Shown: in pieces, positions 12,796 through 32,628 of the stretch
Position numbering within the stretch: position 1 is the stretch's first letter
Layout: each line of letters starts with the position of its first letter
Source of the DNA: Cellulomonas citrea
GTDB lineage: Bacteria; Actinomycetota; Actinomycetes; Actinomycetales; Cellulomonadaceae
Reading direction: 5' to 3'
Length of the DNA stretch: 36,591 nt
Assembly: GCF_009829685.1 (NCBI RefSeq)
Contig: NZ_VWSD01000014.1
Span: 1-36,591, forward strand
The notes under the pieces: model-generated
What the model saw: only the letters and a program-made list of their open reading frames with translations
Told to the model about the DNA's origin: nothing
Databases searched by the model: none
Position numbers and translations under genes: made by a program

Positions 12796-14007
12796 TCAGG
12801 GCCGCTTGACGACGCCCTGTGCGGCGAGGCGCTCGATCTCATCCGACGAGTAGCCGAGGCGGGCGAGCACGTCGTCGGTGTCCTGGCCCTGGTCGGGCAT
12901 CGGTCGCCACACCTGCCCGGGGTGCTGGTCGAAGCGCGGGAACACCCCGAGCCCCTTGAACGTCGCGCCGTCGGCTGTGGCCCACTCCTGCCACACGCCC
13001 CGCGCCTGCAGGTGCGGCTCGGCGACGAGGTCACCGAACTCCATGACCTTCTGCGCGGCGATGCGGTGGGCGGCGAAGTCGGCCTCGACCTCGGCGACTG
13101 TGCGGGCGGCGAGCCAGGCCTCGAGCGCGGCCTCGATCTCGGCCGCGTGCGAGCTGGACAGCCACAGCGCCGAGCAGTCCTCGGGGTAGTCCCCCGAGCC
13201 CCACAGGTGACCCAGCCCGATGGTCTCCAGCAGGTACTTGTTCTGCGGGACGCCGTAGACGCACAACCCGATGAACCCGTCGGAGCACCGGTACTCGCCG
13301 ATGGCGCACAGGTTCTGGTTCCGGGCGCCGGGCCGCGGCCAGACGATGCCGGCGTTGAGGTAGTCGACGAGGTAGTACTGGCCGATCGACAGCAGCGTCT
13401 CGTACATGGCGACGTCGATGGACTCGCCGACCCCGGTGCGCCCCACCTTGTGCATCGCACCGAGCGTCGCGCCCACGATCATGAGTGAGTTGAAGTAGTC
13501 GCCGGCGTACGGACCTGGGTTCATCGGCTGGTCGGGTGTGCCGTTCTGGCTCATGTAGCCCGAGTACGCCATGACCGTGAGGTCGTAGGCGGCACGCGTC
13601 ACCAGCTCCGGCACGCCGCTCTGGCCGAAGCCAGAGACGTGCACGATGACGAGCCTCGGGTTCTCACGGCGCAGCACCTCGTCGGTCAGCCCGCGCTTGG
13701 CCCAGGTGCCACCCTTGCTCGACTCGATGAAGATGTCGGCGTCGGCCAGCATCCGCAGCAGCACCTCACGGCCCTCGGCGGAGAAGAAGTCGAGGGCCAC
13801 GGAGCGCTGGTTGCGGCGCTCGGCCTGCTTGATCCACGGGGTATCGCGGATGGTGTCGCCGGCGCCGGTGTTCTCCAGCCAGGTGACGTCGGCGCCCCAG
13901 TCGGCCATGAGGCTGGCGGCCTTGGGGACGGCGAGCTCCATCGCGGAGTAGACGACGCGCACGTCGTCGAGGACGCCGAAGGACGGCTTGCTCGTGGGGA
14001 TGTCCAT
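12796..14007 (-). CDS. caiB: CaiB/BaiF CoA-transferase family III, CaiB-like
   Basis: 403 residues, very close in length and sequence to E. coli CaiB: shared blocks include DTIRDTPW, DIFIESSKG, SGFGQ and the C-terminal PGQVWRPMP. The catalytic Asp, which forms the acyl anhydride with CoA esters, is Asp170 in PGPYAGDYFNS, matching Asp169 of CaiB. In the carnitine pathway this enzyme moves CoA from the reduced product to the incoming acid, saving ATP; the same recycling is expected here. It starts seven bases after the caiA stop. Naming follows the strong block-by-block match and the CaiA/CaiC neighbours; the actual acid is unknown. Confidence 0.9.
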   Translation of the reverse strand: MDIPTSKPSFGVLDDVRVVYSAMELAVPKAASLMADWGADVTWLENTGAGDTIRDTPWIKQAERRNQRSVALDFFSAEGREVLLRMLADADIFIESSKGGTWAKRGLTDEVLRRENPRLVIVHVSGFGQSGVPELVTRAAYDLTVMAYSGYMSQNGTPDQPMNPGPYAGDYFNSLMIVGATLGAMHKVGRTGVGESIDVAMYETLLSIGQYYLVDYLNAGIVWPRPGARNQNLCAIGEYRCSDGFIGLCVYGVPQNKYLLETIGLGHLWGSGDYPEDCSALWLSSSHAAEIEAALEAWLAARTVAEVEADFAAHRIAAQKVMEFGDLVAEPHLQARGVWQEWATADGATFKGLGVFPRFDQHPGQVWRPMPDQGQDTDDVLARLGYSSDEIERLAAQGVVKRP

Positions 14008-14014
14008 GGCGGCC

Positions 14015-15151
14015 TCAGCTCGCGAACGTGCGGAGCACGCCCTTGGCCACGGTGAGGATCATCATCTCGTCGGTGCCGCCGCTGATCCGGTCGACCCGCA
14101 GGTCGCGCCAGATCCGCTGGATGCGGTGGTCACCGGCCACCGAGACGCCACCCATCACCTGCATCGCGTCGTCGACCACCTCGAACGCGGCGTTGACGCA
14201 GTAGTACTTGCACATCGCCGCCTGGGTCGCGGTCATGCCGTCGGTGTCGTAGTGCCAGGCGGCCTCGTAGACCATGTTCTTCATCGCGTCGAGGCGGATC
14301 GCCATCTCGGTGAACTTCAGCTGGTTGAGCTGGAACCGGCCGATCGGCTTGCCGAACTGGACGCGGGCGTTCGCGTACCGGGCGGCGTCCTCGAACGCGG
14401 AGATCGCCACGGCGTAGTCGCTCGCGGCGACGAGGAACCGCTCGAAGTCGAAGTCCTTGATGCCGCGCTTGAAGCCGTTGCCCTCGGTGCCGAAGATGTC
14501 GGACTCGTCGAGCTCGACGTCCTCGAGGTAGACGTCCGAGCAGGAGTCCATCCGCAGGCCGAGCTTCTCGAGCGGCTCGATGCGCACGCCCGGCAGGGAC
14601 GTGTCGAGGAAGAACTCGGTGAAGACCGTCGGGTCCGCGGCGCTGCGCGCCATGACCACGAGGAACGGCACGTGGGCCGAGGACGTGATGAACGTCTTGT
14701 GGCCGGTGAGGTAGATCTTCCCGTCGCGGCGGGTGTACGTGGTCTGCAGGCTGCCGACGTCGGAGCCAGCGCCCGGCTCGGTGCACGCCGAGTTCCAGAT
14801 CTGCTTGCCCGTGCCGACGTAGGCCAGCACCTTGGCGATCTGCTCGGGGCTCCCCTCGCGCAGGATCGTGTCGAAGCAGGGCAGCTGGTAGAGCACGTAC
14901 GTGGGCGCGCCCCACCGGCCGAGCTCCTCGTACACCGCGGTGAGCGTGACGAGGCCGAGGTTCAGGCCGCCGTGCTCCTCGGGCAGCATGATGAGGTCGA
15001 AGCCGAGGTCGCACAGCTCCTTGACCCAGCGCTCCGGGTAGGTGTGGGTGCGGTCGCACTCGGCGAAGTACGCGTCCCAGTTCTCACGTGCCATGAGCTC
15101 TCGGACGTTCTCGACGAGCAGCTGCTGCTCGTCGGTGAGGCGGAAGTCCAT
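14015..15151 (-). CDS. caiA: acyl-CoA dehydrogenase-fold enoyl-CoA reductase, CaiA-like
   Basis: 378 residues (E. coli CaiA has 380). It begins [20 protein letters not shown] and shares long blocks with Cai[33 protein letters not shown], the FAD-contact motif [19 protein letters not shown], and [12 protein letters not shown] near the end. Where most acyl-CoA dehydrogenases have the catalytic Glu (YEGT), this protein has SGGT, as CaiA does, which suits a reductase rather than an ordinary beta-oxidation dehydrogenase. It should reduce an enoyl-CoA with electrons delivered by FixAB. Start ATG 15151 follows GAGGAG. The frame remains open further upstream, but only into the esterase gene. Confidence 0.92.
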
Positions 15152-15164
15152 CGCGGTCTCCTCG

Positions 15165-16154
15165 TCAGTGGGTGGTCTCGAAGGTGCGGCGCAGGAAGTC
15201 CCCGCCGTGTCGGAGGGCGACGACGGCGTCGTCGAGCATCCGGGAGTAGTGCAGGAAGCCGTGCAGCACGCCGGTGAAGACGTCCTGCTCCACCCGCACA
15301 CCGCGGGCGGCAAGCAGCTGCGCGAGCGCCGTGGTGTCGTCTCGCAGGGGGTCGAGGTCGGCGGACGCGAGGTAGCACGGCGGGACGTCGGACAGATCGG
15401 CGGCCAGGCAGTCGACGTAAGGGCTGCGCTCGTCGGCGGGGTCCGCGAGGTAGCAGTCCAGGTAGTAGGCGAGGTCGGCCTCGCTCAGCCCGTCCCACGG
15501 ACCGCCGAGCAGGCGCCGGCTCGCCGAGTCGCGCAGGCCGTAGAGGCCGTAGTAGAGCGCGAGGCCTGCGAGCGGGACGACGCGCTCGCCTGCGGCCGCG
15601 CGGTCGCGCAGCAGGAGGGCCACGGCCAGGGCCATGTTCGCGCCGCCGCTGTCGCCGGCGATCGCGATCCGGCCGGTGTCGATCGGCAGGCCGCCCGGCG
15701 CGCCGCCGAGCAGCGCGGCCACCACGGCGGCGCACTGCTCGACGGCGACCGGGAACTTCGCCTCGGGCGAGAGCGAGTAGTCGACCCCGAGGACCGCCGC
15801 GCCGGACTCGTGGGCCAGCGCCCGCATGATCCGGTCGTGCGTCTCGAGGTTGCCGACCACCCATCCCCCGCCGTGGATGTAGACGACCACCGGCAGGTCG
15901 ACGCCCTCGTGGGGCACGTGCCACCGGGTCGTGACGTCCCCGTGGGGGGTGCGCACGCTCGCGTCGAGCGTGCGCACCATGGCCGGGCCGCCCTCGTTCC
16001 AGTACCGCCGCTCCAGCGTGTACGCCTGCCGCATCTGGTCGGTGCCGGCGTCGGTCGCGTACGCGTCCGGGGCGAGCTCGGCCGAGGTGGCGAGCACGGC
16101 CCGCATCTGGTCGTTGATCCGGTAGAGGACCGGCAGCGTGGTGAGGGTGTCCAC
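15165..16154 (-). CDS. alpha/beta hydrolase, HSL/Aes-type esterase
   Basis: 329 residues from GTG 16154 (AGGGGA upstream), starting 10 bases after the MFS stop. The hormone-sensitive-lipase motif HGGGW is at residues 94-98 (oxyanion hole) and GDSGG at 167-171 (nucleophile Ser169); Asp268 in DPLRDD and His298 in LHGF complete the triad. There is no signal peptide, so it is cytosolic. It has no counterpart in the carnitine operon. Within this operon it could free the pathway's acid from an ester taken up by the cell; less likely it hydrolyses the CoA thioester product. Substrate unknown. Confidence 0.88.
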
Positions 16155-16164
16155 GGCCTGTCCC

Positions 16165-17484
16165 CTACGCGACCGAGCGGTCGAGCACGGACTCGTCGGT
16201 GCGCTTGTGGGACCTGCGCAGGTAGAGGTACAGCCCCACGGAGGCGAGGGCCGCGAGCACGGCCGAACCGATGAGGATCCCGAAGATCTGCTGGTACGCG
16301 CCGGCCGCGACGTTGCCGGCGGCGTCGGTCTGCGCGTCGAGGATCGAGCCGAACCAGGTGCTGGAGAACGTGTCGGGCAGGAAGCCGATGATCGAGAGCA
16401 ACCCGGTGGCCGCACCGAAGTACGTGAGCGGGACCTTGCCCTCCGTGAGCTGGGCCGAGACCACGCCGAACGCGCCGTTGGCGATGAAGCCGAGGAGCAC
16501 GACGAGCACGCACGCGACGACGACGACGCCCGCCGTGTGCGGCAGCAGCATCATCGCGCCGAGCGCGACGATGAACAGGACCGAGCCGGCGGCGATGACG
16601 AGGGACGGCCTGGTCTTGTTGGCGATCCAGCCGAAGGCCGGACCGGACAGCAGCGTGATGCCGTAGTTGCGGATGTTGGCCACGATCGTCGCGGCGGCGA
16701 GCGAGACGCCAAGCACGCCGGTCATGTACGGCGTCGTGTACGTGGCGCCCGTGTAGAAGAAGTAGACGAAGAACAGCGAGACGGCGGCGATCCAAACCAC
16801 CGGGTCGCGCAGGGCGCGGCCGAACTCGGCCAGGCTGAACGTGCTCTCGCCCTTGATCTCACCGGCGAACTTGGGGATGAACAGCCACGACAGGATGCCG
16901 AGCACGATGATGATGCCGGCGAGGAAGTACAGGTAGATCGAGACGCCGAGCTTGAGGTCCTGACCCACCGCGGCGACGATCCACGTCGAGATGAGACCGA
17001 TGACCAGGCCCGCCACGCCGTAGATGCCATAAGAGAGGCCGATCCGCTTGGGGTACTCGTCCTCCTTGGAGACCAGACGCACGAGCTTGTAGCGCACGCC
17101 CCACCAGATGAGGATTGTCGTGATGCCCATGAGGATGAACACGGCGTAGAGCACCGCCAGGCTCGGCAGCATCGCGTAGACGAGCGTGAGGATGCCGGTC
17201 GAGCAGAACCCGACCGTGGACAGCGTGCGCATCCGGATCTTGTCGGCGAGGATCCCCGACGGCAGGTAGCAGATGAGAGCCGTGATCGCGTAGGCGCTGA
17301 AGACGGCGCCGAGCTGGGTGTTGGTGACCCCGAGCGCCTCCCTCAGCGGGTCGTAGAAGACGGCCTTGAGGTAGGCGGGCGCGTAGATGATCGAGCTGCC
17401 CATGCTCGCGAGGGCGAGCAGGAACCAGCGGCGGCCTGAGCTCAGGTCGGCGTAGGTCTTCTCGTCGCCCAATGAGTTCACCAT
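16165..17484 (-). CDS. MFS transporter, 12-TM (YihN/nitrate-porter-like branch)
   Basis: 439 residues, first gene of the operon. It has twelve hydrophobic segments, starting RRWFLLALASMGSSIIYAP. The sequence after TM2 is GILADKIRMRTLS, a degenerate MFS motif A. The branch resembles YihN-like and organic-acid/phosphate-ester porters rather than drug exporters. Start ATG 17484 is chosen because AAGGAG lies six bases upstream and the longer open frame before it is not protein-like. Being promoter-proximal, it is the best candidate for the substrate importer; the second MFS protein downstream would then export product or take a second substrate. Confidence 0.9.
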   Translation of the reverse strand: MVNSLGDEKTYADLSSGRRWFLLALASMGSSIIYAPAYLKAVFYDPLREALGVTNTQLGAVFSAYAITALICYLPSGILADKIRMRTLSTVGFCSTGILTLVYAMLPSLAVLYAVFILMGITTILIWWGVRYKLVRLVSKEDEYPKRIGLSYGIYGVAGLVIGLISTWIVAAVGQDLKLGVSIYLYFLAGIIIVLGILSWLFIPKFAGEIKGESTFSLAEFGRALRDPVVWIAAVSLFFVYFFYTGATYTTPYMTGVLGVSLAAATIVANIRNYGITLLSGPAFGWIANKTRPSLVIAAGSVLFIVALGAMMLLPHTAGVVVVACVLVVLLGFIANGAFGVVSAQLTEGKVPLTYFGAATGLLSIIGFLPDTFSSTWFGSILDAQTDAAGNVAAGAYQQIFGILIGSAVLAALASVGLYLYLRRSHKRTDESVLDRSVA

Positions 17485-22115: not shown

Positions 22116-23237
22116 TCAGGACTGGCCCCGAGCGGCCCCGAGCAGCTGTAGCCCGAGCACCTCTGCAAGAGCGATGGGTACGGCGTTGCCGATCTGCCTC
22201 GCGATGGCAACCTTCGAGCCGACCCACTGATAGTCGCGCGGGAAACCCTGCAGCAACGCTGCCTCGAAGTGAGTGATCGCCCGATTCGCCGACGGGTGCA
22301 GGTACCGGCCCTTCTCAGGCTTGAAGAACTCGGTCCGGATGGTGACCGACGGCCGGTCCCATCGGAGCCGGCCCATGACGTCGGCAGACCCACTCCGGTG
22401 GTTCACCCAGCACGGAGCGAGCAGGTGCTCCGGGATGTCGAACCGGTTCCCGCCCGGCGGGATGTGCGCGAACCGCTGCAGCGAGAGGTTGGTGTAGCGG
22501 CGGCCGACATGTAGGTCGGTCGTGCGGAAAACGCCGGGCAGTGTGAAGCCGCGGAAGTCGGTGGCCTTGTCGGGAAGGTCGTCCGCGTCCCAGGCGGTGG
22601 GCACGCCGTCTAGGGCTTGCTGGACCGTGCGATGCCGTCCGCTGAATCCCGCGGTCGGCCATCCAGGGAAGGGGAGGTCGCGGTGGTGGCCGATGATCAC
22701 CGCCCTGCGCCTCGCTTGATGGGCGCCGAAGTCCGCGGCGTTGAGAACACGGGCCTGCACGGAGTAGTCCGCCAACAGACCGTCCGGGCGAGTCTCGGCG
22801 ACGAGTGCCTCGTACTGAGGGGACTTCAGAAAAGCGGCGACGTTCTCGACGACGAACCATTTGGGTCTCGCCTTGGTGATTGTCTCGGCGTACTCACGCC
22901 ACAGGACGTTGCGCTCGTCCTCCACGTCCTGCTTGCCGAGGGTCGAGAAGCCCTGGCACGGCGGGCCGCCGACGATGACGTCAACCTCAGGGATGTCGCG
23001 GTCGATAAGCCAGTCCTGAATCGGCCCTACATAGACGGCAGCTTCGGGGTGGTTCGAGGCGTACGTAGCCGCAGCCGCTACGTCCATCTCAACGGCCTGG
23101 ACGGTCCGGAACCCCTTCGTCTGCGCGAACCCAGCGCTGATGCCACCGGCTCCGGCGAACAGGTCGAGAACCGTGAGCCGCTCGACACCTGCGGCGCCTT
23201 GCGACACGATGTCGGTCGATGCAGACAGGTGCCCCAC
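22116..23237 (-). CDS. dcm: DNA (cytosine-5-)-methyltransferase
   Basis: 373 residues from GTG 23237. The C5-methylase motifs come in order: I, LDLFAGAGGISAGF (residues 24-37); IV, GGPPCQGFS with the catalytic Cys94; VI, ENVAAFL (Glu131); VIII, QARRR (174-178); X, ARQIGNAVP near the end. The region between VIII and IX is short, so the target-recognition part is small. It would methylate the host's own sites and protect them from the nuclease module transcribed divergently on the other strand. GTG 23207 is another possible start; the chosen one overlaps the annotated Vsr start by 19 bases. Recognition sequence unknown. Confidence 0.92.
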   Translation of the reverse strand: MGHLSASTDIVSQGAAGVERLTVLDLFAGAGGISAGFAQTKGFRTVQAVEMDVAAAATYASNHPEAAVYVGPIQDWLIDRDIPEVDVIVGGPPCQGFSTLGKQDVEDERNVLWREYAETITKARPKWFVVENVAAFLKSPQYEALVAETRPDGLLADYSVQARVLNAADFGAHQARRRAVIIGHHRDLPFPGWPTAGFSGRHRTVQQALDGVPTAWDADDLPDKATDFRGFTLPGVFRTTDLHVGRRYTNLSLQRFAHIPPGGNRFDIPEHLLAPCWVNHRSGSADVMGRLRWDRPSVTIRTEFFKPEKGRYLHPSANRAITHFEAALLQGFPRDYQWVGSKVAIARQIGNAVPIALAEVLGLQLLGAARGQS

Positions 23238-23683
23238 AACACCCCACCGTACCGAGCACAGGTGACGTGGTCCGCGCCGCCACGCCGGCCATCGCGGCCC
23301 GGATGTCGCGGCAGCGACGCCGTGACACCGCCCCCGAGATCCTGCTCCGCCGCGAGTTGCACCGTCGCGGCCTTCGGTTCCGGGTGGACCACCCGCTGCC
23401 GGGTATGCCACGCCGACGCGCGGATCTCCTGTTCAGCCGGGCACGCGTTGCGGTCTTCGTTGACGGCTGCTTCTGGCACGGGTGCCCCGATCACGGGACC
23501 CGGCCGTCTAGCAATGCGGCATGGTGGAGCGCAAAACTCGACCGGAACATGGAGCGCGACCGCGATACCGATGACCGCCTCGCGGACGCCGGATGGACGG
23601 TCATTCGCGTCTGGGAGCACGAGGGTGCGCAGCAGGCTGCGGATCGGGTGCAGTATGCGGTTCGAGATCGCAACACGCGCTGA
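23219..23683 (+). CDS. vsr: very short patch repair (Vsr) endonuclease
   Basis: 154 residues if begun at ATG 23219, 138 if at GTG 23267; the latter is preceded by a weak AGGTGA, fits the usual Vsr length and would avoid overlapping the methylase start. The core begins SRQRRRDTAPE, then PGMPRRRADLLF with Asp69, equivalent to the metal-binding Asp51 of E. coli Vsr, and VDGCFWHGCP with His87, equivalent to His69. It ends with GWTVIRVWEHE. Vsr nicks T:G mismatches left when 5-methylcytosine deaminates, which explains its place beside a C5 methylase. As first gene of the restriction operon it might instead act as a strand-cutting subunit. Confidence 0.9.
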   Translation: MQTGAPQHPTVPSTGDVVRAATPAIAARMSRQRRRDTAPEILLRRELHRRGLRFRVDHPLPGMPRRRADLLFSRARVAVFVDGCFWHGCPDHGTRPSSNAAWWSAKLDRNMERDRDTDDRLADAGWTVIRVWEHEGAQQAADRVQYAVRDRNTR

Positions 23684-23778
23684 CTCTCCGCCTCCGCGCG
23701 TCCACCGGGATGGCACGATCGTCTCGCGCCGCCCACAAGAGCCGAATCACGGGCGACCGATGCCGAGGGGGCTCGCTC

Positions 23779-26388
23779 GTGTCAGTCAACAGCCTGGATG
23801 ACGATCGATACGAGGCGATCATCAAGGCGGCCCGGATGCAACCAGCGGATGAGGTCGAGGAGTACCTCAAACTGGTGATCGGCGACGAAGGAGTCGTCCG
23901 GGCGTTCATCGAGCGTTTCGACGCCGAGAAGGCCGCCACCATCGAACTGCGGGATCCCTCGGGGATCGGTCGCGAGGACCGAACGCCGTGGTACGGCGGC
24001 CCGCGCAAGCACGACCGCTTCTGGCCGCCCCTTCGGCAGTCGCTGGAGGACGGCCTGGGTGAGGAGGCGACGGGGCGCATCGACGCAGCGTCCAGCAAGG
24101 TCGTCGCGATGCTCGACGACCCGAACAGCGCCGCATTCAAGTCCAAGGGTCTGGTCGTGGGGCACGTCCAGTCGGGGAAGACTTCGAACTTCACTGCCGT
24201 GATCGCCAAGGCGGCCGACGCCGGGTACAAGGTCTTCATCGTTCTCTCCGGCGTTCACAACGCACTCCGACGCCAGACCCAACTGCGGCTCGTCAAGGAC
24301 CTAGTTGAACCGAACCAAGGGGTGTGGCACCAGATCACCACACCCGACCACGACTTCGTGCCCCCTCCGAACGCGTCATCATTCCTTGCTGGCAAGGAGC
24401 AGCGCGTTCTGCTGGTCGTCAAGAAGAACTCTGTCGTGCTGCGCAAACTCCATCGCTGGCTGAGGAGCGCCGACGCCTACCTCGGCGTACCCACGCTGAT
24501 CATCGACGACGAGGCCGACCAGGCCACGGTCGCAACCAAGACGATCAACCCCTTGATCGCGAAGCTGATCGATGTGCTGCCCAAGGTCTGCTACGTCGGG
24601 TACACAGCCACGCCCTTCGCCAACCTACTGATCGATCCCGGCGACGAGCGCGACTTCTACCCAAGGGACTTCATCCTGAGCCTCAGCCGAGACGCCCAGT
24701 ACCAAGGACCGGAGACCCTCTTCGGCAGGGAACCGATCGACGGGGAGGACCCGAGCGAGGTTCCCGCGGGTCTCGACATGATCCGGCAGGTACCCGTGGA
24801 CGAGCTCGGCGATCTGCGTCCCGCATCACGATCAGGAGTCGCAGGCTTCGTGCCCGTCGTCACGCCGTCGCTCCGCGAGGCCATCTTGTGGTTCTGGCTG
24901 GCCACCGCGGCGCGGCGCGTCAGGGACGACGGTGAGCGCCACTCGTCGATGCTCATCCACGCCGACTCCAATACGCACGTCCACGACTCCTATGACCCTC
25001 CCGTGCGCCGGCTCAGGAACACGGTTCTCGCCGAGCTCCGGGCGGGGGACGCGACGCTCGAGGGCGAGTTGCAGAGCCTCTGGGAGCGAGAGATCGCGAG
25101 AGTGCCGGCAGCCGACCTGGGCGAGCGCCCTGTCGGGTTCGCTGAGATCCGGAGCGTTCTGGAGGACGTCGTCGCCAGTACGCGGGTCATCCGGGACCAC
25201 TACCGCTCGCAGGACCGCCTCGACTACGACCAGGGCCCGGTGACGGTGATCGCCATCGGCGGCAACACCCTCTCCCGGGGGCTGACCTTGGAAGGTCTCG
25301 TCGTCAGCTTCTTCGTCCGCAGCGCCAACGTCTACGACACCCTGCTCCAGATGGGCCGGTGGTTCGGCTATCGCCGCAACTACCGTGACCTGCCCCGGGT
25401 GTGGATGCCGGACGAGACCAAGGAGTGGTACACACACCTGTCGACGGTCGAGGCGGAGATACGACGCGAGATCGACCGGTACCTGGTGGAGCACCGGACA
25501 CCGCTCGACTTGGCCGTCCGCATCAGGTGCCACCCGAAGATGCGCGTGACCGCGCCATCCAAGATGACATCGTCGGTCCGCGCCGCAGCGGCATACGGCG
25601 GCCAGCTCGTCGAGTCGCGGTACTTCCCCACGGACCCCTCCGAGGAGACACGGAGGTGGCATCGCGACAACGCCCGGGCAGTCGGCGTCCTCCTGGAAGC
25701 TGTGGACGCCCATGGCGCAGGACGGCCCGTCGGCGGCGGCAAGTACCTCTGGGAGCGCGTTCCCATGGACCTCGTCACGCAGTTCATCAGCGCCTACCAC
25801 TTCCACGAACGGTCCCCCGAGGCTGACCGAGGGCTCCTCCTCGAGTACATCTCCAGGCGCTCCACGGCCGGCGGGCTCGCTCGTTGGGACGTCGCGGTCA
25901 TGGGCGTTGACCCGTCGAATGCACCCAGCGCCGTGACCGTGGTCGGTCATCACACGATCGGATGCGTCAGGCGCGCTCGGATCTCGGGCAACCAGGACGC
26001 ACCCGTCGCCGATATCAAGACCCTGAGTGGGTCCCGCGATGAGGGCATCGACCTTCAGGTCTCCACCGACGACACAAGCCGGGCGAAACTGGCGCGCCTG
26101 CGAACCTGGCAGCGACCAGAGACAGGCCTGGTGATGCTGTACCCGATCGACCCCGTCTCTGACACCGGCCGTGGACGCCCGACCCTCGCCGCGCCCGTTG
26201 ATGTCGTGTGGGGAGCCGCCATCGTCTTCCCCGAGCCGGCCGCCGGCGACGTGACCGTCGACTATGCCTACGTCGCCGCTGATCTGGCGCACGCCTTCCC
26301 GGCAGCAGTCGACGAAGCCGACGAGGACGACACCGAGCTTGCAGCACACCTGGCCTCTGACCTGGACGCCGAGTCGAGCGATGACTGA
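23779..26388 (+). CDS. Z1-domain superfamily II helicase/ATPase of a restriction system
   Basis: 869 residues from GTG 23779 (GAGGGGG seven bases upstream), 95 bases after vsr. SF2 helicase motifs are clear: Walker A GHVQSGKT (128-135), Walker B/DEAD-like IIDDEAD (241-247), TATP (276-279), and the later block with SRGLTLEG and QMGRWFGYR (about 524-532) that contains the arginine finger and is the core of the Z1 domain. The C-terminal third has no recognised domain and ends in an acidic tail. Z1 proteins are known from restriction-modification neighbourhoods with GHKL ATPases, where they probably translocate on or remodel DNA. The stop overlaps the next gene's start by eight bases. Confidence 0.88.
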   Translation: MSVNSLDDDRYEAIIKAARMQPADEVEEYLKLVIGDEGVVRAFIERFDAEKAATIELRDPSGIGREDRTPWYGGPRKHDRFWPPLRQSLEDGLGEEATGRIDAASSKVVAMLDDPNSAAFKSKGLVVGHVQSGKTSNFTAVIAKAADAGYKVFIVLSGVHNALRRQTQLRLVKDLVEPNQGVWHQITTPDHDFVPPPNASSFLAGKEQRVLLVVKKNSVVLRKLHRWLRSADAYLGVPTLIIDDEADQATVATKTINPLIAKLIDVLPKVCYVGYTATPFANLLIDPGDERDFYPRDFILSLSRDAQYQGPETLFGREPIDGEDPSEVPAGLDMIRQVPVDELGDLRPASRSGVAGFVPVVTPSLREAILWFWLATAARRVRDDGERHSSMLIHADSNTHVHDSYDPPVRRLRNTVLAELRAGDATLEGELQSLWEREIARVPAADLGERPVGFAEIRSVLEDVVASTRVIRDHYRSQDRLDYDQGPVTVIAIGGNTLSRGLTLEGLVVSFFVRSANVYDTLLQMGRWFGYRRNYRDLPRVWMPDETKEWYTHLSTVEAEIRREIDRYLVEHRTPLDLAVRIRCHPKMRVTAPSKMTSSVRAAAAYGGQLVESRYFPTDPSEETRRWHRDNARAVGVLLEAVDAHGAGRPVGGGKYLWERVPMDLVTQFISAYHFHERSPEADRGLLLEYISRRSTAGGLARWDVAVMGVDPSNAPSAVTVVGHHTIGCVRRARISGNQDAPVADIKTLSGSRDEGIDLQVSTDDTSRAKLARLRTWQRPETGLVMLYPIDPVSDTGRGRPTLAAPVDVVWGAAIVFPEPAAGDVTVDYAYVAADLAHAFPAAVDEADEDDTELAAHLASDLDAESSDD

Positions 26389-27400
26389 AGCGACCGGCGC
26401 ACCCGCATCTCAGGTCCGCGCCAAGCTGACTTCCGCTTGGACGACCCTTCACGACCGACAGGCCGGAGGGAACCGACGGCTGGACGCCATCCAGCTGGAC
26501 CCGCTGCACGTGAGTGGACGCCCTCTCCTGGCGGCGCTCGACTCCGACGGACGACACCACCTCCTGGTGCCCCTGCCGACAAGGGCCGTCGAACTCGAGG
26601 ACTCGCGGAGCGCCGGCGTACAGCTCACCCCGCGGACGCTGGAGCGAGCCGGGGGACTCCAGCGCTATGCGGACCTGGTCTGCCTCCGCCCCGACCTCAT
26701 CGGAGTCTTCTCCGGCCTCGCAGCCGACGTGGCCGCCGCAGTCATCGGCTCCCCCGAGCCGAGCACCGTCGTGGCGAGGAAGCTCAACGCGTGGCGCGAA
26801 CTCCTCGAGACACCCCCACTCACGTGGTCTTCGGGCCGGGTCGCCGGGCTGTTCGCCGAACTACTGGTCCTGCGATCCCTCCTCGAACTGGACCCGTCGG
26901 CGACCACCTCCTGGTCAGGACCATTCGGCGAAGCTCAGGACTTCCGCCTTGGAAGCGAGGCACTGGAGATCAAGGCAACACTCTCGCCGGAGACGCGGAT
27001 GATCTCCGTCCACGGCTGGGACCAGCTCGAGCCCCCGTCTGGCGGACACCTCACACTCGGGTGGTTCCGCCTTCGAGCGCATCCCGACGGGGACACTGTG
27101 TCCGAACTCGTCGGCGACTGCCTACAGCGAGCGAACGCGGCAGGTGACGTCCGCACCAGGCTCGACCGCCTAGCGATCCCCGATCTCGACGCGGAGCCTC
27201 TGGCGGTACGTATCAAGGTCGTCGAAGAGCGCTGGTACACCGTAGGGCCGGACTTCCCCACAGTGGTGCCAGCGCGGTTCGCGAACGGGCACGTACCCAC
27301 GGGGGTGGTGTCGCTGGACTACCGCGTCGACCTCGATGGCCTGCGACCGTCACGTGACGACCGCGCAGCCATCCTGCGACGATTCGTGGAGCGGACGTGA
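26381..27400 (+). CDS. PD-(D/E)XK motif nuclease (DUF4420-like)
   Basis: 339 residues from ATG 26381, overlapping the Z1 gene by eight bases (ATGACTGA). The nuclease core is visible as Glu160 in GLFAELLVL, then WSGPFGEAQDF with Asp187, then Glu196-x-Lys198 in EIKAT, the order expected for the PD-(D/E)XK fold. The layout matches the DUF4420 family described as PD-(D/E)XK motif proteins in restriction loci. It is the most likely DNA-cutting subunit of this system, with the Z1 helicase and GHKL ATPase as its motor and switch. It couples to the next gene by a four-base overlap. Confidence 0.8.
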   Translation: MTEATGAPASQVRAKLTSAWTTLHDRQAGGNRRLDAIQLDPLHVSGRPLLAALDSDGRHHLLVPLPTRAVELEDSRSAGVQLTPRTLERAGGLQRYADLVCLRPDLIGVFSGLAADVAAAVIGSPEPSTVVARKLNAWRELLETPPLTWSSGRVAGLFAELLVLRSLLELDPSATTSWSGPFGEAQDFRLGSEALEIKATLSPETRMISVHGWDQLEPPSGGHLTLGWFRLRAHPDGDTVSELVGDCLQRANAAGDVRTRLDRLAIPDLDAEPLAVRIKVVEERWYTVGPDFPTVVPARFANGHVPTGVVSLDYRVDLDGLRPSRDDRAAILRRFVERT

Positions 27401-29238
27401 GAACCCAGCCGGGTTGGTGGTCCCAACCCTTCCGCCCGGACGGCGGCATCGCCGCCGAGGGGCTCCGGAACCAGCTCGGTCGGCCTTCGCTCTCGGTACT
27501 CACTGTCCTCGTCAGGGAGGCCGCTCAGAACTCCTGGGACGCCCGCCTCCCGACCGGCGACCTGCAACTTGAAATCGACCTAGGGGACCTCGATCGGACC
27601 CCGGCAGCGGCGTGGCGAACGATGCTCGGTCCCGGTGCGCCCGAGCTGCCGGCCGAGGAAACACGGCTTCGGACGCTGACGGACTACCTCAACCAGGACA
27701 GCCTCACCTACCTCGCGATCAGCGACCGGAACGCCACCGGTCTCGGCGGGCCAGTACGGTCTGACGAGCCGGCCCCGCCCGGCGGGCGAGGCTGGCTGTC
27801 GTTCGTCCTCAACAGCGGCGAGCGACGCGACGTCGAGGGCGGGGGCGGCACCTATGGCTTCGGGAAGGGCGCCTTCTTCCTCGCCAGCCGAGTCGGCGTG
27901 ATCCTCATCCATACACGGTTCCGAGACGAGACCGGACTACGAGTTCGGCTCATAGGCTCGGCATTGCTGCATCAGCGGGACGAGACCGAACCACCGCTGA
28001 CGGGCCGGCACTGGTGGGGTCAGGTGCGCACGGACCACTGCACGCCGCTCGAGGACGACCAGGCCGAGGCCACCGCCAGGGCCCTCGGCCTTCCCGCGTT
28101 CTCAGGCGCTGACACCGGCACGACGGTCGTGGTGCTCGATCCCGAACTCGGCACGCCCGGTGCCGACGAGGACCGACAGATGGAGCGGGCCGAGGCAGGA
28201 CGCTTCCTCGCCGACGCCGCGGCACTCAACCTCTGGCCAATCACCTTGCACGGACGCACCCAACGGATGGCGATCACCGTGACCGTCGATGGAGCACCCG
28301 TCGACGTGCCCGACGAAACGAACAACGAGGTGATTCGGGCTTTCGCCCGCGCATACCGCAAGTCCCGCGGTGACGGGGGCTCTCGCGTCACCTGCGGCAA
28401 CCCGAAGGCTGACCTGGGCTACATCGCGCACGAGGCCGTCGTCCACACCGAGTCCTCCGGGCCCGCCGCCGCCGAACTCGGCCTGCCGACTGACGCCGCT
28501 CCCCACCACGCCGCTCTCCTGAGATCACCAGACCTGGTCGTGCGATACCTACCCGGCCCGCCTCGACCGGACCCCGCGTTTGGCTACGCCGCCGTCTTCC
28601 GCGCCGACGACTCCATGGATCACGTGTTCTCTGCCGCCGAGCCGCCGACACATGACGACTGGGTGCCCGACCAGCTCGATGGCTGGGATCGCTCATTCGT
28701 CCGGGTGGCTCGGCGTCGGATCACCGAGTACTGCAGCGACGTGGCAGGCATCGTCCGGACCGCGCGCTCCCACTCGACCGGTTCCGTCGGGCAGTTGTCC
28801 CGCCAGCTCGGATTCCTGATGGACGCCGTCACCCAAGATGGTGGCGCTGTGGATCCGTTCCCCGATCGTGGCGGATCTCCCGGAGGAGACGATGGGTCAC
28901 GGCCTTCCGGCGGCGGAGCCGCGACGGGCAGACGGAGCGCTCGCATCCGCGCAACCGGAGAACCCGAATTCCGGGTGCATGAAGGCGAGGTCCTGTTGAC
29001 GCAGGTCGTGGACGTCGCTGAGGCGACCCTCGCGCAGGCTACGGTGCGAGTTGTCACCGCTGAGGGCGCTGAGCAACGGAGCCCTGCGGCGGCGGCCCGG
29101 CCAGAAGTCCTCGGCTGGGTCGTTCCTGACGGAACCTTCGCCCCTGGCGCGCGCGTGGAGCTGCCCGAAGGCTCGAGCACCCTGCTCATCCGCCCAGTCG
29201 AGGACGCCGCGATCGAGTTCACCGTGAGCAGCGTCTGA
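27397..29238 (+). CDS. GHKL-type ATPase, paraMORC/MutL-like, of a restriction system
   Basis: 613 residues from GTG 27397, overlapping the nuclease stop in GTGA. The N-terminal Bergerat fold is clear: VREAAQNSWDA (Glu41, Asn45), ISDRNATGLGG (Asp110, Gly115-Gly117) and GGGTYGFGKGAFFLAS, the glycine-rich lid, at about 150-163. The rest includes a Gly/Ser/Asp-rich linker near 490-520 and a beta-rich C-terminal domain with no family I recognise. Prokaryotic MORC and paraMORC ATPases are known from contextual studies to sit with SF2 helicases and nucleases in restriction-modification systems; they probably clamp on DNA and switch the complex on ATP binding. Confidence 0.85.
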   Translation: MRTQPGWWSQPFRPDGGIAAEGLRNQLGRPSLSVLTVLVREAAQNSWDARLPTGDLQLEIDLGDLDRTPAAAWRTMLGPGAPELPAEETRLRTLTDYLNQDSLTYLAISDRNATGLGGPVRSDEPAPPGGRGWLSFVLNSGERRDVEGGGGTYGFGKGAFFLASRVGVILIHTRFRDETGLRVRLIGSALLHQRDETEPPLTGRHWWGQVRTDHCTPLEDDQAEATARALGLPAFSGADTGTTVVVLDPELGTPGADEDRQMERAEAGRFLADAAALNLWPITLHGRTQRMAITVTVDGAPVDVPDETNNEVIRAFARAYRKSRGDGGSRVTCGNPKADLGYIAHEAVVHTESSGPAAAELGLPTDAAPHHAALLRSPDLVVRYLPGPPRPDPAFGYAAVFRADDSMDHVFSAAEPPTHDDWVPDQLDGWDRSFVRVARRRITEYCSDVAGIVRTARSHSTGSVGQLSRQLGFLMDAVTQDGGAVDPFPDRGGSPGGDDGSRPSGGGAATGRRSARIRATGEPEFRVHEGEVLLTQVVDVAEATLAQATVRVVTAEGAEQRSPAAAARPEVLGWVVPDGTFAPGARVELPEGSSTLLIRPVEDAAIEFTVSSV

Positions 29239-30152
29239 TGCGCGCTCTCCCGTACCGCACTCCCGCATTCGAGAGCGTCCTCGCCAGCCCCTGGGTGGTC
29301 GACGGTGTCCCGCTCGGCGAACGGCTCGACCAGGGATGGGACTACCAGACTCAGCTCGCGGCACGACGACGTCTGACCATCGACGTCGCACGCGTGCGGC
29401 GAGAGGCGGGCCTGACCATGGCAGACGAAATGGTCGTCAGTAGCCGATACCGGGCCACCGGTTCGTTGATCCGACACCGAGGGAACATGGAGAGCCTTGC
29501 CGCCGGCTCTCCCGCGATCGCGGATGTCGAGACGGAGGTCCGGATCGACGGCGCCGACCTCGCGGGCGCGCTCGAGTTGGAGACGACGGTCACCCTCGGC
29601 TCCGTCACGCCACGGCAGCAGACTTTCGTCGCGCGCCGACCTGGCAGCATCCTGTGGCGGCGGAGCGACCTGTTCGCAGTCGAAGGCGGCGGGGGCCTCC
29701 TGCCAGTTGCGCGGACTTCCTTCGCAGGCAGCGCGCTCCCCAAGGGCGCATGGTTCATCTCCGCAGGCACAGGGGAATGGGACGCACCGGCCATGGGCCA
29801 CCTCCTCGTGTTGCTGAACGAGGACAACCCGGGCGTCCTGGCGGCACTCGAGCGCACCCTCGCCGGGGAGTTCACAAGTGCCGTGTGGCAAGCCCTCGCT
29901 CTCGACATCGTCCACACGGTGTTGTCGCTCGCGGCCGACGACCCCGACTTCGCGACGACCGACGGCGAGACCGATGATGAGATCTCGAAGGCGGCACTTG
30001 CGACGCGCTTCATCCGTACCTGGTATGCGCATCCGGGCGAGGAAGCCGCCGATGCACTAGGACGGCTGCGCTACGACGCCCAGAACGAACCGGCCCGATT
30101 GCGGGCCGTCCTCCAGGAACGACTGCACTTCCTCGGGAGGGATCTCGGTTGA
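29238..30152 (+). CDS. unknown protein of the Z1/GHKL restriction operon
   Basis: 304 residues. ATG 29238 overlaps the preceding TGA by one base (TGATG). I recognise no family. The middle (about 85-180) is rich in beta-type sequence, and the C-terminal third is helical and acidic, with a DDPDFATTDGETDDE stretch. There is no Cys cluster, nuclease motif, signal peptide or membrane span. Its position inside a fully overlapping operon means it is made together with the GHKL ATPase and nuclease; a structural or target-recognition subunit is the likeliest role, but that is inference from context. Confidence 0.75.
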   Translation: MRALPYRTPAFESVLASPWVVDGVPLGERLDQGWDYQTQLAARRRLTIDVARVRREAGLTMADEMVVSSRYRATGSLIRHRGNMESLAAGSPAIADVETEVRIDGADLAGALELETTVTLGSVTPRQQTFVARRPGSILWRRSDLFAVEGGGGLLPVARTSFAGSALPKGAWFISAGTGEWDAPAMGHLLVLLNEDNPGVLAALERTLAGEFTSAVWQALALDIVHTVLSLAADDPDFATTDGETDDEISKAALATRFIRTWYAHPGEEAADALGRLRYDAQNEPARLRAVLQERLHFLGRDLG

Positions 30153-30907
30153 CCAGGCTGTACCCGCGCCTCCTGCCGAGCGAGGTCGACAAGGCGTTCG
30201 CCCTTCTTGCTGGTCTGTCGCCGCACGCAATCGAGCTGCTCGGCCTTCAGGAGAGCGGATACGTCTTTGCGGCCGCCGGCGGCGACCGTGTCAGCCCCGA
30301 CGAACTCGCCGCACTGCGTTCCGAACTGACGGCGTGTGCCCGCGAATTCGGCTACCCCGACACCAACCGAATCGACGACCTGATCGCGTTCGACAGGACG
30401 CTCGCCCGCTGGCTCCACCGACAACTTGACATCGTGCCAGGCGAGGCATCGTCCAAGGCGGTGTGGGGATACCTCGGACTCGTCGTAGCACCCCACGTCG
30501 CAGCATGGCGCTTCCCTAGTCGAGAGCCCGGCTACACCAGAGAACGGTTCGATGGGTCCGACCTGACACGCAACACCTTCTCGCGCCTCTGGTGGCGCGC
30601 TGCCGTCCTAGTGGACGAGGACCAGCCCGATCCCTACCGTCTGGTCGACCTACTCGGCGAAGAGGCGATCGATCAGTTGATGGCGCGACGCCGTTCGCTC
30701 GCGGCGTCGCCCGGTCTCGCGCGCGCCATCGTGCGAGAGGCCAGCCGACGGGAAAACGACCTTGATCGATCGCTGCTTCGTGACGCGCTCCAGAGGTTGC
30801 TGCGGCTCTCGGCATTCATGGACTTCGAGGTGATGGACGACTTCGAACTGAGCAGGACTGTAGGCGAGGAGTTCGACGCCTCACACCAAGCGCTTCGCGG
30901 TGCGTGA
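30149..30907 (+). CDS. DUF6339-like protein, last gene of the restriction operon
   Basis: 252 residues from TTG 30149, with GGGAGG (30135-30140) at good spacing and a four-base TTGA overlap with the gene before. It resembles the DUF6339 family: a conserved LWWRAAVL, then DPYRLVDLLGEEAIDQLMARRRSLAASPGLARAIVREA. It is mostly helical, with no catalytic motif visible. DUF6339 members, as far as I recall, occur in just such loci, but no biochemical role is known to me. The 168-base gap after it is convergent with the broken MBL gene and holds a small CCACCC/GGGTGG dyad (31056-31069), possibly part of a terminator. Confidence 0.7.
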   Translation: MTRLYPRLLPSEVDKAFALLAGLSPHAIELLGLQESGYVFAAAGGDRVSPDELAALRSELTACAREFGYPDTNRIDDLIAFDRTLARWLHRQLDIVPGEASSKAVWGYLGLVVAPHVAAWRFPSREPGYTRERFDGSDLTRNTFSRLWWRAAVLVDEDQPDPYRLVDLLGEEAIDQLMARRRSLAASPGLARAIVREASRRENDLDRSLLRDALQRLLRLSAFMDFEVMDDFELSRTVGEEFDASHQALRGA

Positions 30908-31075: not shown

Positions 31076-32162
31076 TCAATCCTGAAACGCGAGAGTCGCG
31101 GTGATCGCCTCGACAACTTGGCTCACGACTCCGCTCGCCATGTCACTATCAATCCGCATGCTGACCAACGGTCGGCCTGCCGAGACGGGGTCACCCGACC
31201 TCACATGGAGCCCGACCCCGACTGGGTCGCTGAACTCGATCCCGGAGGGCGGACGAACGGCACCCTGCGCGCGAACAAGCACATCGCGGATCGTAGACAG
31301 GCTGTACATCACCTTGACATTCGTTGCCGCAGGAATGGTCCTGCGGGGCGCTCGCAGCAGACCCCAATGGTCGCGAACGAGGCGAAGCACCGCGTCCGGT
31401 CTAGACAGAGCGGCAGAATCGAAGCCCCCGATCGCCTGGCTCAGCCGCCGCTCAAACGCCTCGAGGGGTGAGCCGCCAGCCCGCATGACGTACGCCACCC
31501 AGATCCAGACTGTCGCCTTCACCGCCGCTTGCGACCCCCGACGCCATCTCGCCTGCGTCGGCCTCGACCTGCCCCACAACCGCACCACTGGCAATGCCAC
31601 CGGCCGAGGCCAACCTCGACTCAAGGGGCGACTCAGGGTCCCGCTCGCTCGGCTCGTCATCGCTGGGATAGGTGCGCGGAGACTTCGGGGCCTGATCCGC
31701 GCCAGCCTCGAACGGTGGAGCCAGCAAGACTTCGATCACCGCGGGTCGACTCGAGAGGCCAGCGAACCAGGCCGTTGGGTCGGCGAGCAGCGCAGCGTAC
31801 TCATCCGGCAGTCGCATCTCGTCACGGGCGGCCAGGAACTGGGCCGCCAGGTGGAGCCGCTTGACCGCCGACACGGTGGGTATGACGTACCGACACGGGG
31901 AGAGCTCACGATCGAGGTGGTCGATCCCACTGACGTGGTCCACATCGAAGTGCAAGATGAAGGCCACGTCAGGGCGGCCGAGATGGCCCGAGGAACCGTT
32001 CCTGCGGCGCTTCAATTCACGGACGTCACGCTCGATCAGGTGATGGCCGCTCAACGTGCCGCAGTCGTACACGTACGAAACGCCCGCCGCCGCAGATCTT
32101 TCGAACGGTGGCTCCATTGCGGCGACAGATCCGGAGTGGAAGAAGACCTGACCGACCGCCAC
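31076..32162 (-). pseudogene. MBL-fold metallohydrolase gene interrupted by a frameshift
   Basis: Starting at GTG 32162 the frame reads VGQVFFHSGSV, VSYVYDCGTLSG, then ILHFDVDHVSGI: a metallo-beta-lactamase-fold N-terminus with the metal motif H71-x-D73-x-D75-H76. After an acidic linker this frame closes at 31452. A second frame on the same strand carries protein-like sequence (ATVWIWVAYVMRAGG onward) and stops at 31076. The frames join if one base is removed near a run of five G (C5 on the plus strand, 31535-31539), giving about 361 residues. The tail, GLHVRSGDPVSAGRPL, resembles the C-terminal domain of pyrimidine-nucleoside phosphorylases. This is either a real frameshift, a base-call error, or slippage. 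MBL-fold proteins occur in several defence loci; its role here is unknown. Confidence 0.6.
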
Positions 32163-32539: not shown

Positions 32540-32554
32540 CCTGCACTTCACTTG

Positions 32555-32628
32555 TAGCGGGGGCAGGATTTGAACCTGCGACCTCTGGGTTATGAGCCCA
32601 GCGAGCTACCGAGCTGCTCCACCCCGCG
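32555..32628 (-). tRNA. initiator tRNA-Met (CAT anticodon)
   Basis: Read on the minus strand it starts CGCGGGGTGGAGCAG, has the anticodon CAT (complement of 32592-32594) on a stem closed by three G:C pairs, and a T-arm GCAGG-TTCAAAT-CCTGC. Initiator marks are the GGG/CCC anticodon stem and the unpaired first base (C1 opposite U72), the actinobacterial form. The CCA end is not encoded (74 nt to the discriminator A). Confidence 0.95.

What the first reader, a model, noticed from the sequence alone, without database searches (positions are those of the whole stretch)
22116..30907. Seven-gene restriction/defence system: C5 methylase, Vsr, Z1 helicase, PD-(D/E)XK, GHKL ATPase and two unknown proteins
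Six plus-strand genes are packed with overlaps of 8, 4, 1 and 4 bases after vsr, and the methylase is divergent. The parts match the association of paraMORC GHKL ATPases with Z1 helicases and nucleases proposed from gene-neighbourhood studies. Its mechanism is largely unexplored, and the 304-residue and DUF6339-like proteins have no known role. The set suggests an ATP-gated DNA clamp, a motor and a nuclease sparing methylated DNA.
Basis: partly seen in the sequence, partly recalled or inferred. Interest (0 to 1): 0.78.

Follow-up and report, generated by a model that had tools for sequence, protein, structure and literature searches.

The report
GHKL-equipped motor-nuclease restriction locus
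A seven-gene bacterial locus that looks like an ATP-driven restriction system against foreign DNA; its kind was predicted before but never tested as far as was seen, and its relatives suggest that it was assembled from exchangeable modules, one of which often carries a catalytically dead DNA methyltransferase.

Summary
In detail: seven genes at 22116-30907, five of them overlapping by 8, 4, 1 and 4 bases, with a divergent methylase. It belongs to a known, predicted kind: Z1 motor + DUF4420 PD-(D/E)XK nuclease + GHKL (paraMORC2) + C5 methylase + Vsr (Iyer 2008), apparently 'Type I' of Miller 2022, and a sister of MZA, but not MZA (no MzaB-type GHKL, no AIPR). New here: (1) the five core genes keep order in 77 of 80 loci and diverge together (r 0.95-0.98), whereas methylase (0.28-0.32) and Vsr (0.52-0.56) are exchanged; (2) two modules are separable: Z1-DUF4420 occurs without the GHKL trio at 16 of 22 places, and the trio occurs without Z1 beside EcoRII-, AlwI-, Sau3AI- and NgoMIV-type enzymes; (3) in 32 of 80 loci DUF6339 is fused to a C5-methylase domain whose catalytic PC is PR, and 5 of 6 stand-alone dead relatives sit by the trio against 0 of 23 intact ones (exceptions found later). 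This points to DUF6339 as the arm that addresses the machine to DNA. Best reading: methylation-guided ATP-dependent restriction. No activity was shown.

The parts
22116..23411 (-). C5 cytosine DNA methyltransferase, divergent; class 2 of two main classes exchanged among relatives; as listed it overlaps vsr, true start probably further in
   Evidence: Pfam DNA_methylase 6.8e-58; PCQ in 81 of 81 rows; class
23219..23683 (+). Vsr, very-short-patch mismatch endonuclease
   Evidence: TIGR00632 117.9 bits, cut-off 97.85; six tested residues kept in 75 of 75 rows
23779..26388 (+). Z1-domain SF2 motor ATPase (open frame from 23593; start GTG 23779 inferred)
   Evidence: Pfam Z1 3.3e-64; PADLOC MzaC 1.4e-94; SGKT, DDEAD and QxxRxxG in 86 of 86 rows, one A to S
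26381..27400 (+). DUF4420 PD-(D/E)XK nuclease, MzaD-like
   Evidence: Pfam 2.4e-38; E-D-ExK in 81 of 81 rows
27397..29238 (+). GHKL ATPase of the paraMORC2 type, PDC-M33A-like
   Evidence: PADLOC 2e-11; motifs and ExxxH E415-H419
29238..30152 (+). P304: N-terminal Ig-like beta sandwich plus C-terminal helices; counterpart of PDC-M33B by position
   Evidence: model pLDDT 90.4, pTM 0.71; Foldseek and VIA-align; hhalign to M33B inconclusive
30149..30907 (+). DUF6339 protein, all-helical, minimal form without a C-terminal extension
   Evidence: Pfam 1.2e-15; model pLDDT 95.4, pTM 0.90; no PDB match below E 0.001

Best explanation
An ATP-dependent, methylation-guided restriction (anti-foreign-DNA) system of the Z1/DUF4420/GHKL kind. 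Proposed working: the C5 methylase marks host sites; a complex built on GHKL-P304-DUF6339 holds DNA (the GHKL dimer closing on ATP, as MutL-type ATPases do) and, through DUF6339, is addressed to unmodified sites; the Z1 motor is loaded and moves along the duplex, as proposed for CglI; the DUF4420 PD-(D/E)XK nuclease cuts when two complexes, or a complex and a second site, meet. Vsr repairs the T:G mismatches that 5-methylcytosine makes by deamination and is not needed for cutting. Shown here: intact genes and active sites, conserved order, joint divergence of the five core genes, exchange of methylase and Vsr, separability of two modules, fusion of DUF6339 to a dead methylase domain in relatives. 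Inferred: every biochemical step and the anti-phage purpose.
For: Order kept in 77 of 80 loci; scored junctions within 60 nt in 77 of 77, 76 of 76, 79 of 79 and 79 of 79. Core distances correlate at r 0.95-0.98 (n 81-86); highest shuffled value 0.29. Motifs intact. At 16 further DUF4420 places Z1 is adjacent in 16, a C5 methylase is in the stretch in 15 and Vsr in 12. Of six of those loci read further, five have another GHKL that PADLOC matches to MzaB, one of them weakly. Related Z1 motors drive ATP-dependent cleavage, with communication along DNA in CglI (passages of PMC5737866 and PMC4267653). DUF6339-dead methylase fusions in 32 of 80.
Against: DUF4420 is missing in 3 of 80 loci, in L019 and L022, and was not found in the stretches of plasmid loci L147 and L148, so it is not the only possible effector. 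A restriction core should be tied to its methylase by shared specificity, yet they diverge almost independently (r 0.28-0.32) and two methylase classes occur with the same core clades; either both classes modify the same site or recognition works in another way. No CglI-like recognition subunit is present. The window's genome has no match to the dead-methylase family at 1e-60, so the addressing role of DUF6339 is carried over from relatives; 40 of 80 loci have no long tail on DUF6339.
Confidence: 0.6

Rival explanations
1. Guard or abortive-infection system: the GHKL trio watches the methylase or the state of the DNA and releases the motor-nuclease on cell DNA when a phage interferes, so that the infected cell dies.
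For: The sister MZA-like locus L180 carries AIPR, an abortive-infection family; trio with AIPR and no annotated methylase in the stretch of an Enterococcus plasmid (L153); the trio rides with unrelated nucleases, as a guard would.
Against: No AIPR here; linkage to a methylase (81 of 86 rows) fits self/non-self marking better.
Confidence: 0.17
2. Control module: the trio regulates expression or timing of a restriction-modification system instead of acting on target DNA.
For: HTH_3 domain at the N-terminus of the GHKL in L025, and sigma-70 regions plus HTH_3 before the GHKL in L026; a tail on DUF6339 in L091 that reads like an HTH by eye.
Against: The window's GHKL and DUF6339 have no HTH match; only 1 of 80 loci has such a DUF6339 tail (label set by hand); N-termini of the GHKLs of the 80 were not searched for HTH. 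The trio lies within 60 nt of the nuclease gene.
Confidence: 0.1
3. Repair module: the MutL-like GHKL works with Vsr on deaminated 5-methylcytosine, and motor and nuclease process the nick.
For: MutL-Vsr co-operation in E. coli is discussed in Iyer 2008; Vsr in 71 of 80 loci.
Against: 9 of 80 loci show no Vsr, some of them stretches cut short; Vsr diverges separately (r 0.52-0.56) and changes place and strand.
Confidence: 0.08
4. Chance pile-up of defence genes in an island.
For: Defence islands collect genes; L022 has DISARM genes beside a related set.
Against: Order in 77 of 80, close junctions, r 0.95-0.98.
Confidence: 0.03

Closest known systems
Putative defence system 'Type I' of Miller et al. 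2022 (PMC9523054; section 11 and passages read)
   Same: Z1 protein (925 aa there, 869 here), PD-(D/E)XK protein, cytosine methylase, three further genes, strong association with DNA repair endonucleases
   Different: The three further genes could not be compared: figures are not held and supplements were not open to me. The section calls for further work on function; no experiment is described in it
MZA (mzaABCDE; as named in PMC9523054; Gao 2020 itself not read)
   Same: Z1 (MzaC) and DUF4420 (MzaD) relatives and a GHKL ATPase; methylase and Vsr nearby in the MZA-like locus L180
   Different: paraMORC2 GHKL in place of MzaB; P304 and DUF6339 in place of AIPR (MzaE); no sigma factor (MzaA) among the seven genes
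paraMORC operons of restriction-modification systems (Iyer, Abhiman and Aravind 2008, PMC2292703; abstract, passages and section 5 read)
   Same: SFII helicase with DThhQxuRhFG, RE-fold E-D-ExK protein, C5 methylase, Vsr and, for paraMORC2, GHKL with ExxxH
   Different: P304 and DUF6339 are not named in the parts I read
PADLOC candidate PDC-M33 (A, B, C)
   Same: GHKL (A), a middle protein of about 280-330 aa (B), DUF6339 (C), in the same order
   Different: The M33-type loci I read without Z1-DUF4420 differ in that respect; P304 does not match the M33B model
CglI / NgoAVII ATP-dependent restriction enzymes (passages of PMC5737866 and PMC4267653)
   Same: C5 methylase plus a DEAD-Z1 motor
   Different: Their nuclease subunit is PLD plus a B3 recognition domain; they are described as three-gene systems, so without GHKL, P304 or DUF6339

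Membership tests
MZA | MzaC and MzaD homologues | tested here: met
   PADLOC 1.4e-94 and 3.9e-14; below the NCBIfam equivalog cut-offs, 372.8 of 1500 and 77.2 of 420 bits
MZA | MzaB-type GHKL | tested here: not met
   P0005 matches only PDC-M33A in PADLOC at E up to 1; NF041932 (MzaB) not found in the own genome
MZA | MzaE (AIPR) | tested here: not met
   No AIPR match among the nine window proteins scanned nor MzaE among eight; found in L180
MZA | MzaA sigma factor | tested here: inconclusive
   No MzaA match among the proteins scanned (list for P0001 cut at 25); PMC9523054 says that mzaA is present in only a few of its Type II systems
paraMORC2 (Iyer 2008) | GHKL ATP-binding motifs | tested here: met
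   85-86 of 86 rows, one row without the N-box letters
paraMORC2 (Iyer 2008) | ExxxH motif | tested here: met
   E415 and H419 in 86 of 86
paraMORC2 (Iyer 2008) | S5 domain around that motif | not tested
   No structure of P0005 was predicted; both jobs went to P0006 and P0007
Miller 2022 Type I | Z1 + PD-(D/E)XK + C5 methylase + three further genes, with a repair endonuclease | tested here: met
   By description only
Miller 2022 Type I | Identity of the three further genes | not testable with these tools
   Figures are not held and look-ups in supplements are capped at 0
PDC-M33 | M33A and M33C homologues in A-B-C order | tested here: met
   2e-11 and 5.9e-10
PDC-M33 | M33B homologue | tested here: inconclusive
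   No PADLOC match for P0006; hhalign 83.6% with a three-row profile, 39.4% with 14 rows
CglI/NgoAVII | PLD nuclease with B3 recognition domain | tested here: not met
   No such match among the window proteins

The most novel reading that the evidence does not exclude
GHKL-P304-DUF6339 is a portable addressing clamp that can be coupled to very different cutters (Z1-DUF4420, EcoRII, AlwI, Sau3AI or NgoMIV type). DUF6339 is its specificity adaptor, and a retired C5 methyltransferase (catalytic PC to PR or PS) serves as the reader of the site, fused to DUF6339 in one lineage and a separate gene in others: a methyltransferase turned into the sensor that checks whether its active sister has marked the DNA. 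In five loci (L025, L026, L225, L226, L228) the trio with one active and one dead methylase, and mostly Vsr, was found without Z1-DUF4420; if no restriction enzyme is hidden there (I did not search those stretches systematically), this would be restriction without a known restriction nuclease.
Probability: 0.25. Interest if true: 0.8.

Novelty: new member of a known kind. Interest (0 to 1): 0.55.

Why it matters
What prokaryotic MORC-like ATPases do in restriction systems has been a prediction since 2008 (PMC2292703). Splitting this locus into a motor-nuclease pair, a GHKL trio and exchangeable methylase and Vsr gives small sets to test one by one, and the dead-methylase lineage gives a concrete idea, quick to test, of how the GHKL module finds its site. 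It also warns that proteins that match cytosine-methylase models (Pfam DNA_methylase, PADLOC DruM) can lack the catalytic cysteine.

Tried and rejected
Chance association: rejected for the core. Filing as MZA: rejected. Solved-structure relatives by sequence at E up to 1: none for P304 or GHKL, one at 0.64 for Z1, four for DUF6339 (best 0.014). Fold searches: P304's first half is a generic Ig-like sandwich (top Z 8.3, rmsd 3.0 over 100 residues, tied with many unrelated chains); AlkC bound to DNA is among the Foldseek rows, but TM is 0.25 and I draw nothing from it. DUF6339: best Foldseek E 0.19; best Z 7.1 over 61 residues against cyclin-like helices, perhaps only a common arrangement; residues 1-178 were barely tested by that second look. 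Relatives of P304 in viral contigs: none. Empty-site comparison: the relative's contig L145 ends at the spot, nothing learnt. Matching the dead methylase to the specificity of its partner: for pairs of loci whose partner methylases are under 40% identical the dead domains average 56% identity, against 70% for the rest (198 and 267 pairs), undecided. Papers: searches showed no experiment on this gene set in the titles, abstract starts and passages seen; many terms were noisy. Of four terms, DUF6339, PF19866 and PF14390 occur in no held paper and DUF4420 in one.

Mistakes that I corrected: I tested for the catalytic motif with PCQ or PPC, which misses the valid PCP form. Re-read: the fused domains are PR in 33 of 33 (32 of the 80 loci, plus L017, the same place as L070), whereas most stand-alone relatives turned out to be intact. 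The first domain tally mixed DUF6339 with the fused methylase and was replaced. In one search two profiles were built partly from loci then tested (L025, L226, L228 in both, L026 in one); one search found the same GHKL and DUF6339 genes there with the older profiles.
Full report
What is there. The window lies in a high-G+C genome of 3.4 Mb (G000). A same-genus genome, G561, has a contig of 128461 bases, the length of the Cellulomonas pakistanensis contig of L032, so the genus is probably Cellulomonas; this is an inference from a length.

Intactness. In alignments of the window protein with its relatives the residues tested are kept: Z1 SGKT, DDEAD and QxxRxxG in 86 of 86 (one A to S); DUF4420 E-D-ExK in 81 of 81; GHKL motifs in 85-86 of 86 (one row lacks the N-box letters); ExxxH in 86 of 86; Vsr in 75 of 75; methylase PCQ in 81 of 81.

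Conservation. A scan of genome contigs with the GHKL alignment found 281 relatives, of which the best 80 were kept and read; the other 201 were not seen. In those 80: Z1 80, P304 80, DUF6339 80, DUF4420 77, methylase domain 78, Vsr 71; the core order Z1-DUF4420-GHKL-P304-DUF6339 on one strand in 77 (three of them with one gene counted twice), and in 3 the same without DUF4420. The 78 counts the fused domain; with that left out, 81 of 86 rows (80 loci, five further loci and the window) have a methylase. Some contigs end inside the stretch. GHKL was the query, so its own count means nothing; but a P304 search found 6 of 396 genomes, all six with Z1, GHKL, P304 and DUF6339 together and five with DUF4420, and a DUF6339 search found 5 of 297, of which four have all five genes and one (L141) lacks Z1. 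Scored junctions lie within 60 nt in 77 of 77, 76 of 76, 79 of 79 and 79 of 79.

Joint divergence. Distances between loci for the five core proteins correlate at r 0.95-0.98 (n 81-86); core against Vsr 0.52-0.56; core against methylase 0.28-0.32; Vsr against methylase 0.48; the largest value in 300 shuffles of any pair is 0.29. Shared descent of hosts can raise all these values, so the contrast is what counts. The methylases fall into two main classes (55 and 25) plus one single, and both main classes occur within core clades 1, 5 and 9.

Two separable modules. (a) In 296 genomes of the class, DUF4420 occurs at 22 places in 21 genomes. Six are loci of the present kind. The other 16 were all scanned: Z1 adjacent in 16, C5 methylase in the stretch in 15, Vsr in 12, the GHKL, P304 and DUF6339 of this family in 0. 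For six of these 16 I listed the genes and scanned nine proteins: five have another GHKL (HATPase_c_3), which PADLOC matches to MzaB (L191 weakly, 0.0066); L180 also has AIPR/MzaE; L193 has a GmrSD_N protein instead. (b) In the same sample of 296, P0005 finds 15 genomes: the window and seven with Z1 (L016-L022), six without (L023-L028), and one dropped because only residues 490-605 matched. Of the six without Z1, six have a C5 methylase, four a Vsr (L025-L028) and four a DUF6339 (L023, L025, L026, L027; not found in L024 and L028). Companions: two NgoMIV-type proteins in L027, an NgoFVII-C and an AspBHI_N protein in L023, a BsaWI match below cut-off in L028. From plasmids I read 11 of 28 hits: three consecutive genes of fitting size in all 11, DUF6339 by annotation or profile in 10 (not L153). 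Companions in the stretch: MutH/Sau3AI with methylase (L149), AlwI (L151, L154), EcoRII-C with methylase (L155, L156), an N6-methylase, S-subunit and MmeI set (L152), AIPR (L153), methylase and Vsr with a NOV_C protein (L150), Z1 with DUF4420 (L146), Z1 without it (L147, L148). The one phage-collection hit was not read. The match of P304 to the middle protein M33B stays inconclusive; the DUF6339 profiles match with probability 98.1.

The dead methylase. In 32 of the 80 loci DUF6339 continues into a C5-methylase domain (Pfam DNA_methylase 6e-38 in L070) in which the catalytic PC is PR, 33 of 33 with the duplicate place L017. In 31 of those 32 a separate methylase was found in the stretch, in L102 none. 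Seven further loci have a different long tail; of three of these scanned (L053, L072, L101) only L072 reaches Pfam DUF3320. One (L091) has a tail that reads like an HTH by eye, and 40 have a short tail or none. The closest PADLOC family (PDLC00029) was sought in 296 genomes and matched in 31 at 1e-60. I examined 29 stand-alone places: of 6 with a dead motif (PR or PS) 5 sit beside GHKL and DUF6339 and a separate methylase, of 23 with PC 0 do (Fisher p 5e-5). Four of those five also have Vsr and none has Z1. A last look added cases on both sides: L091, one of the 80, has a stand-alone dead methylase (PR) beside the Z1-type core; but L066 and L016 (= L053, split in two frames), also loci of the Z1 type, have PC-intact members of this family in their stretches, L066 about 5 kb beyond the trio and L016 next to a second Z1 gene; the second place in G075 is intact without a trio; and the second place in G239 shows no PC, perhaps PS, without a trio. 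So the link of dead copies with the trio is strong but not exclusive. Relatedness of the dead ones was not tested, so the p value overstates their independence.

Structure. P0006 (55 sequences): pLDDT 90.4, pTM 0.71, Ig-like sandwich and a helical C-terminal part. P0007 (54 sequences): pLDDT 95.4, pTM 0.90, all helical, no PDB match below E 0.001. A weak or missing match does not show a new fold.

How it may work. Z1 motors power cleavage in CglI and NgoAVII, with communication along the DNA proposed for CglI (passages). Iyer 2008 proposed that MORCs and paraMORCs loop DNA between recognition and cleavage sites. VcSduA, a protein with a GHKL ATPase domain and a PD-(D/E)xK nuclease, protects against some BASEL phages, and its authors hypothesise that the GHKL domain controls the nuclease (passages). 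From recall, not from any call: EcoRII, Sau3AI and NgoMIV are enzymes that need or prefer two DNA sites; if that holds for the companions seen here, the common job of the trio could be to bring or hold two sites together. The set is small and picked by hand, so this is only a hypothesis.

Novelty. By the text of Miller 2022 the gene content is that of their Type I, and Iyer 2008 had most of the parts. Hence a new member of a known, still only predicted, kind. In the papers seen I met no mention of the joint divergence, of the trio moving between restriction systems, or of the dead-methylase link; searches are the basis, supplements were not opened, and most subscription papers are not held.

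Papers: PMC2292703 abstract, passages and section 5; PMC9523054 section 11 and passages; PMC5379612 section 9 and passages, which describes a Corynebacterium island with a Z1 helicase, DUF4420 and a methylase; PMC8011034, PMC5737866, PMC4267653 and PMC12137116 passages; Gao 2020 nothing (known through PMC9523054).

Noticed in passing
L026:8156-11749 (-) and L225:13531-17127 (-): Open frames of about 1200 aa with a GHKL of this family; in L026 sigma-70 regions 2, 3 and 4 and an HTH precede the GHKL in one frame; L225 was not scanned. mzaA of the sister system is a sigma factor too.
   Followed up: partly
L149:7728-7958, L150:7750-7980, L154:7742-7975, L156:7669-7896, L155:7755-7943, L024:8716-8943, L028 at 9822-10046: A small gene of about 62-77 aa directly upstream of the GHKL in trio loci that lack Z1; two were scanned and have no Pfam match above cut-off. 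A search with these found none in the window.
   Followed up: partly
L022:15439-19499: DISARM genes (DrmA 5e-211, DrmB 8.7e-24) beside a related Z1-GHKL-P304-DUF6339 set that lacks DUF4420.
   Followed up: no
L016:317-3226 and 13584-16745: A second, 33% identical Z1 protein and a UvrD helicase fused to a PD-(D/E)XK domain on either side of the system; a PC-intact methylase split in two frames lies beside that second Z1.
   Followed up: partly
window 31452-32162 (-): Between the system and the tRNA-Met at 32554-32628 lies a frame with a weak metallo-beta-lactamase-like match (E 0.055, below cut-off); it may be a remnant.
   Followed up: no
L141:10720-12495 (-): A second GHKL protein (HATPase_c_3 8.3e-6) between a trio and Vsr plus methylase.
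   Followed up: no
PADLOC PDLC00029 (DruM) matches, e.g. L025:14831-16228, L226:9485-10516: This family holds both intact and catalytically dead proteins, so a match to it does not prove methylase activity.
   Followed up: yes
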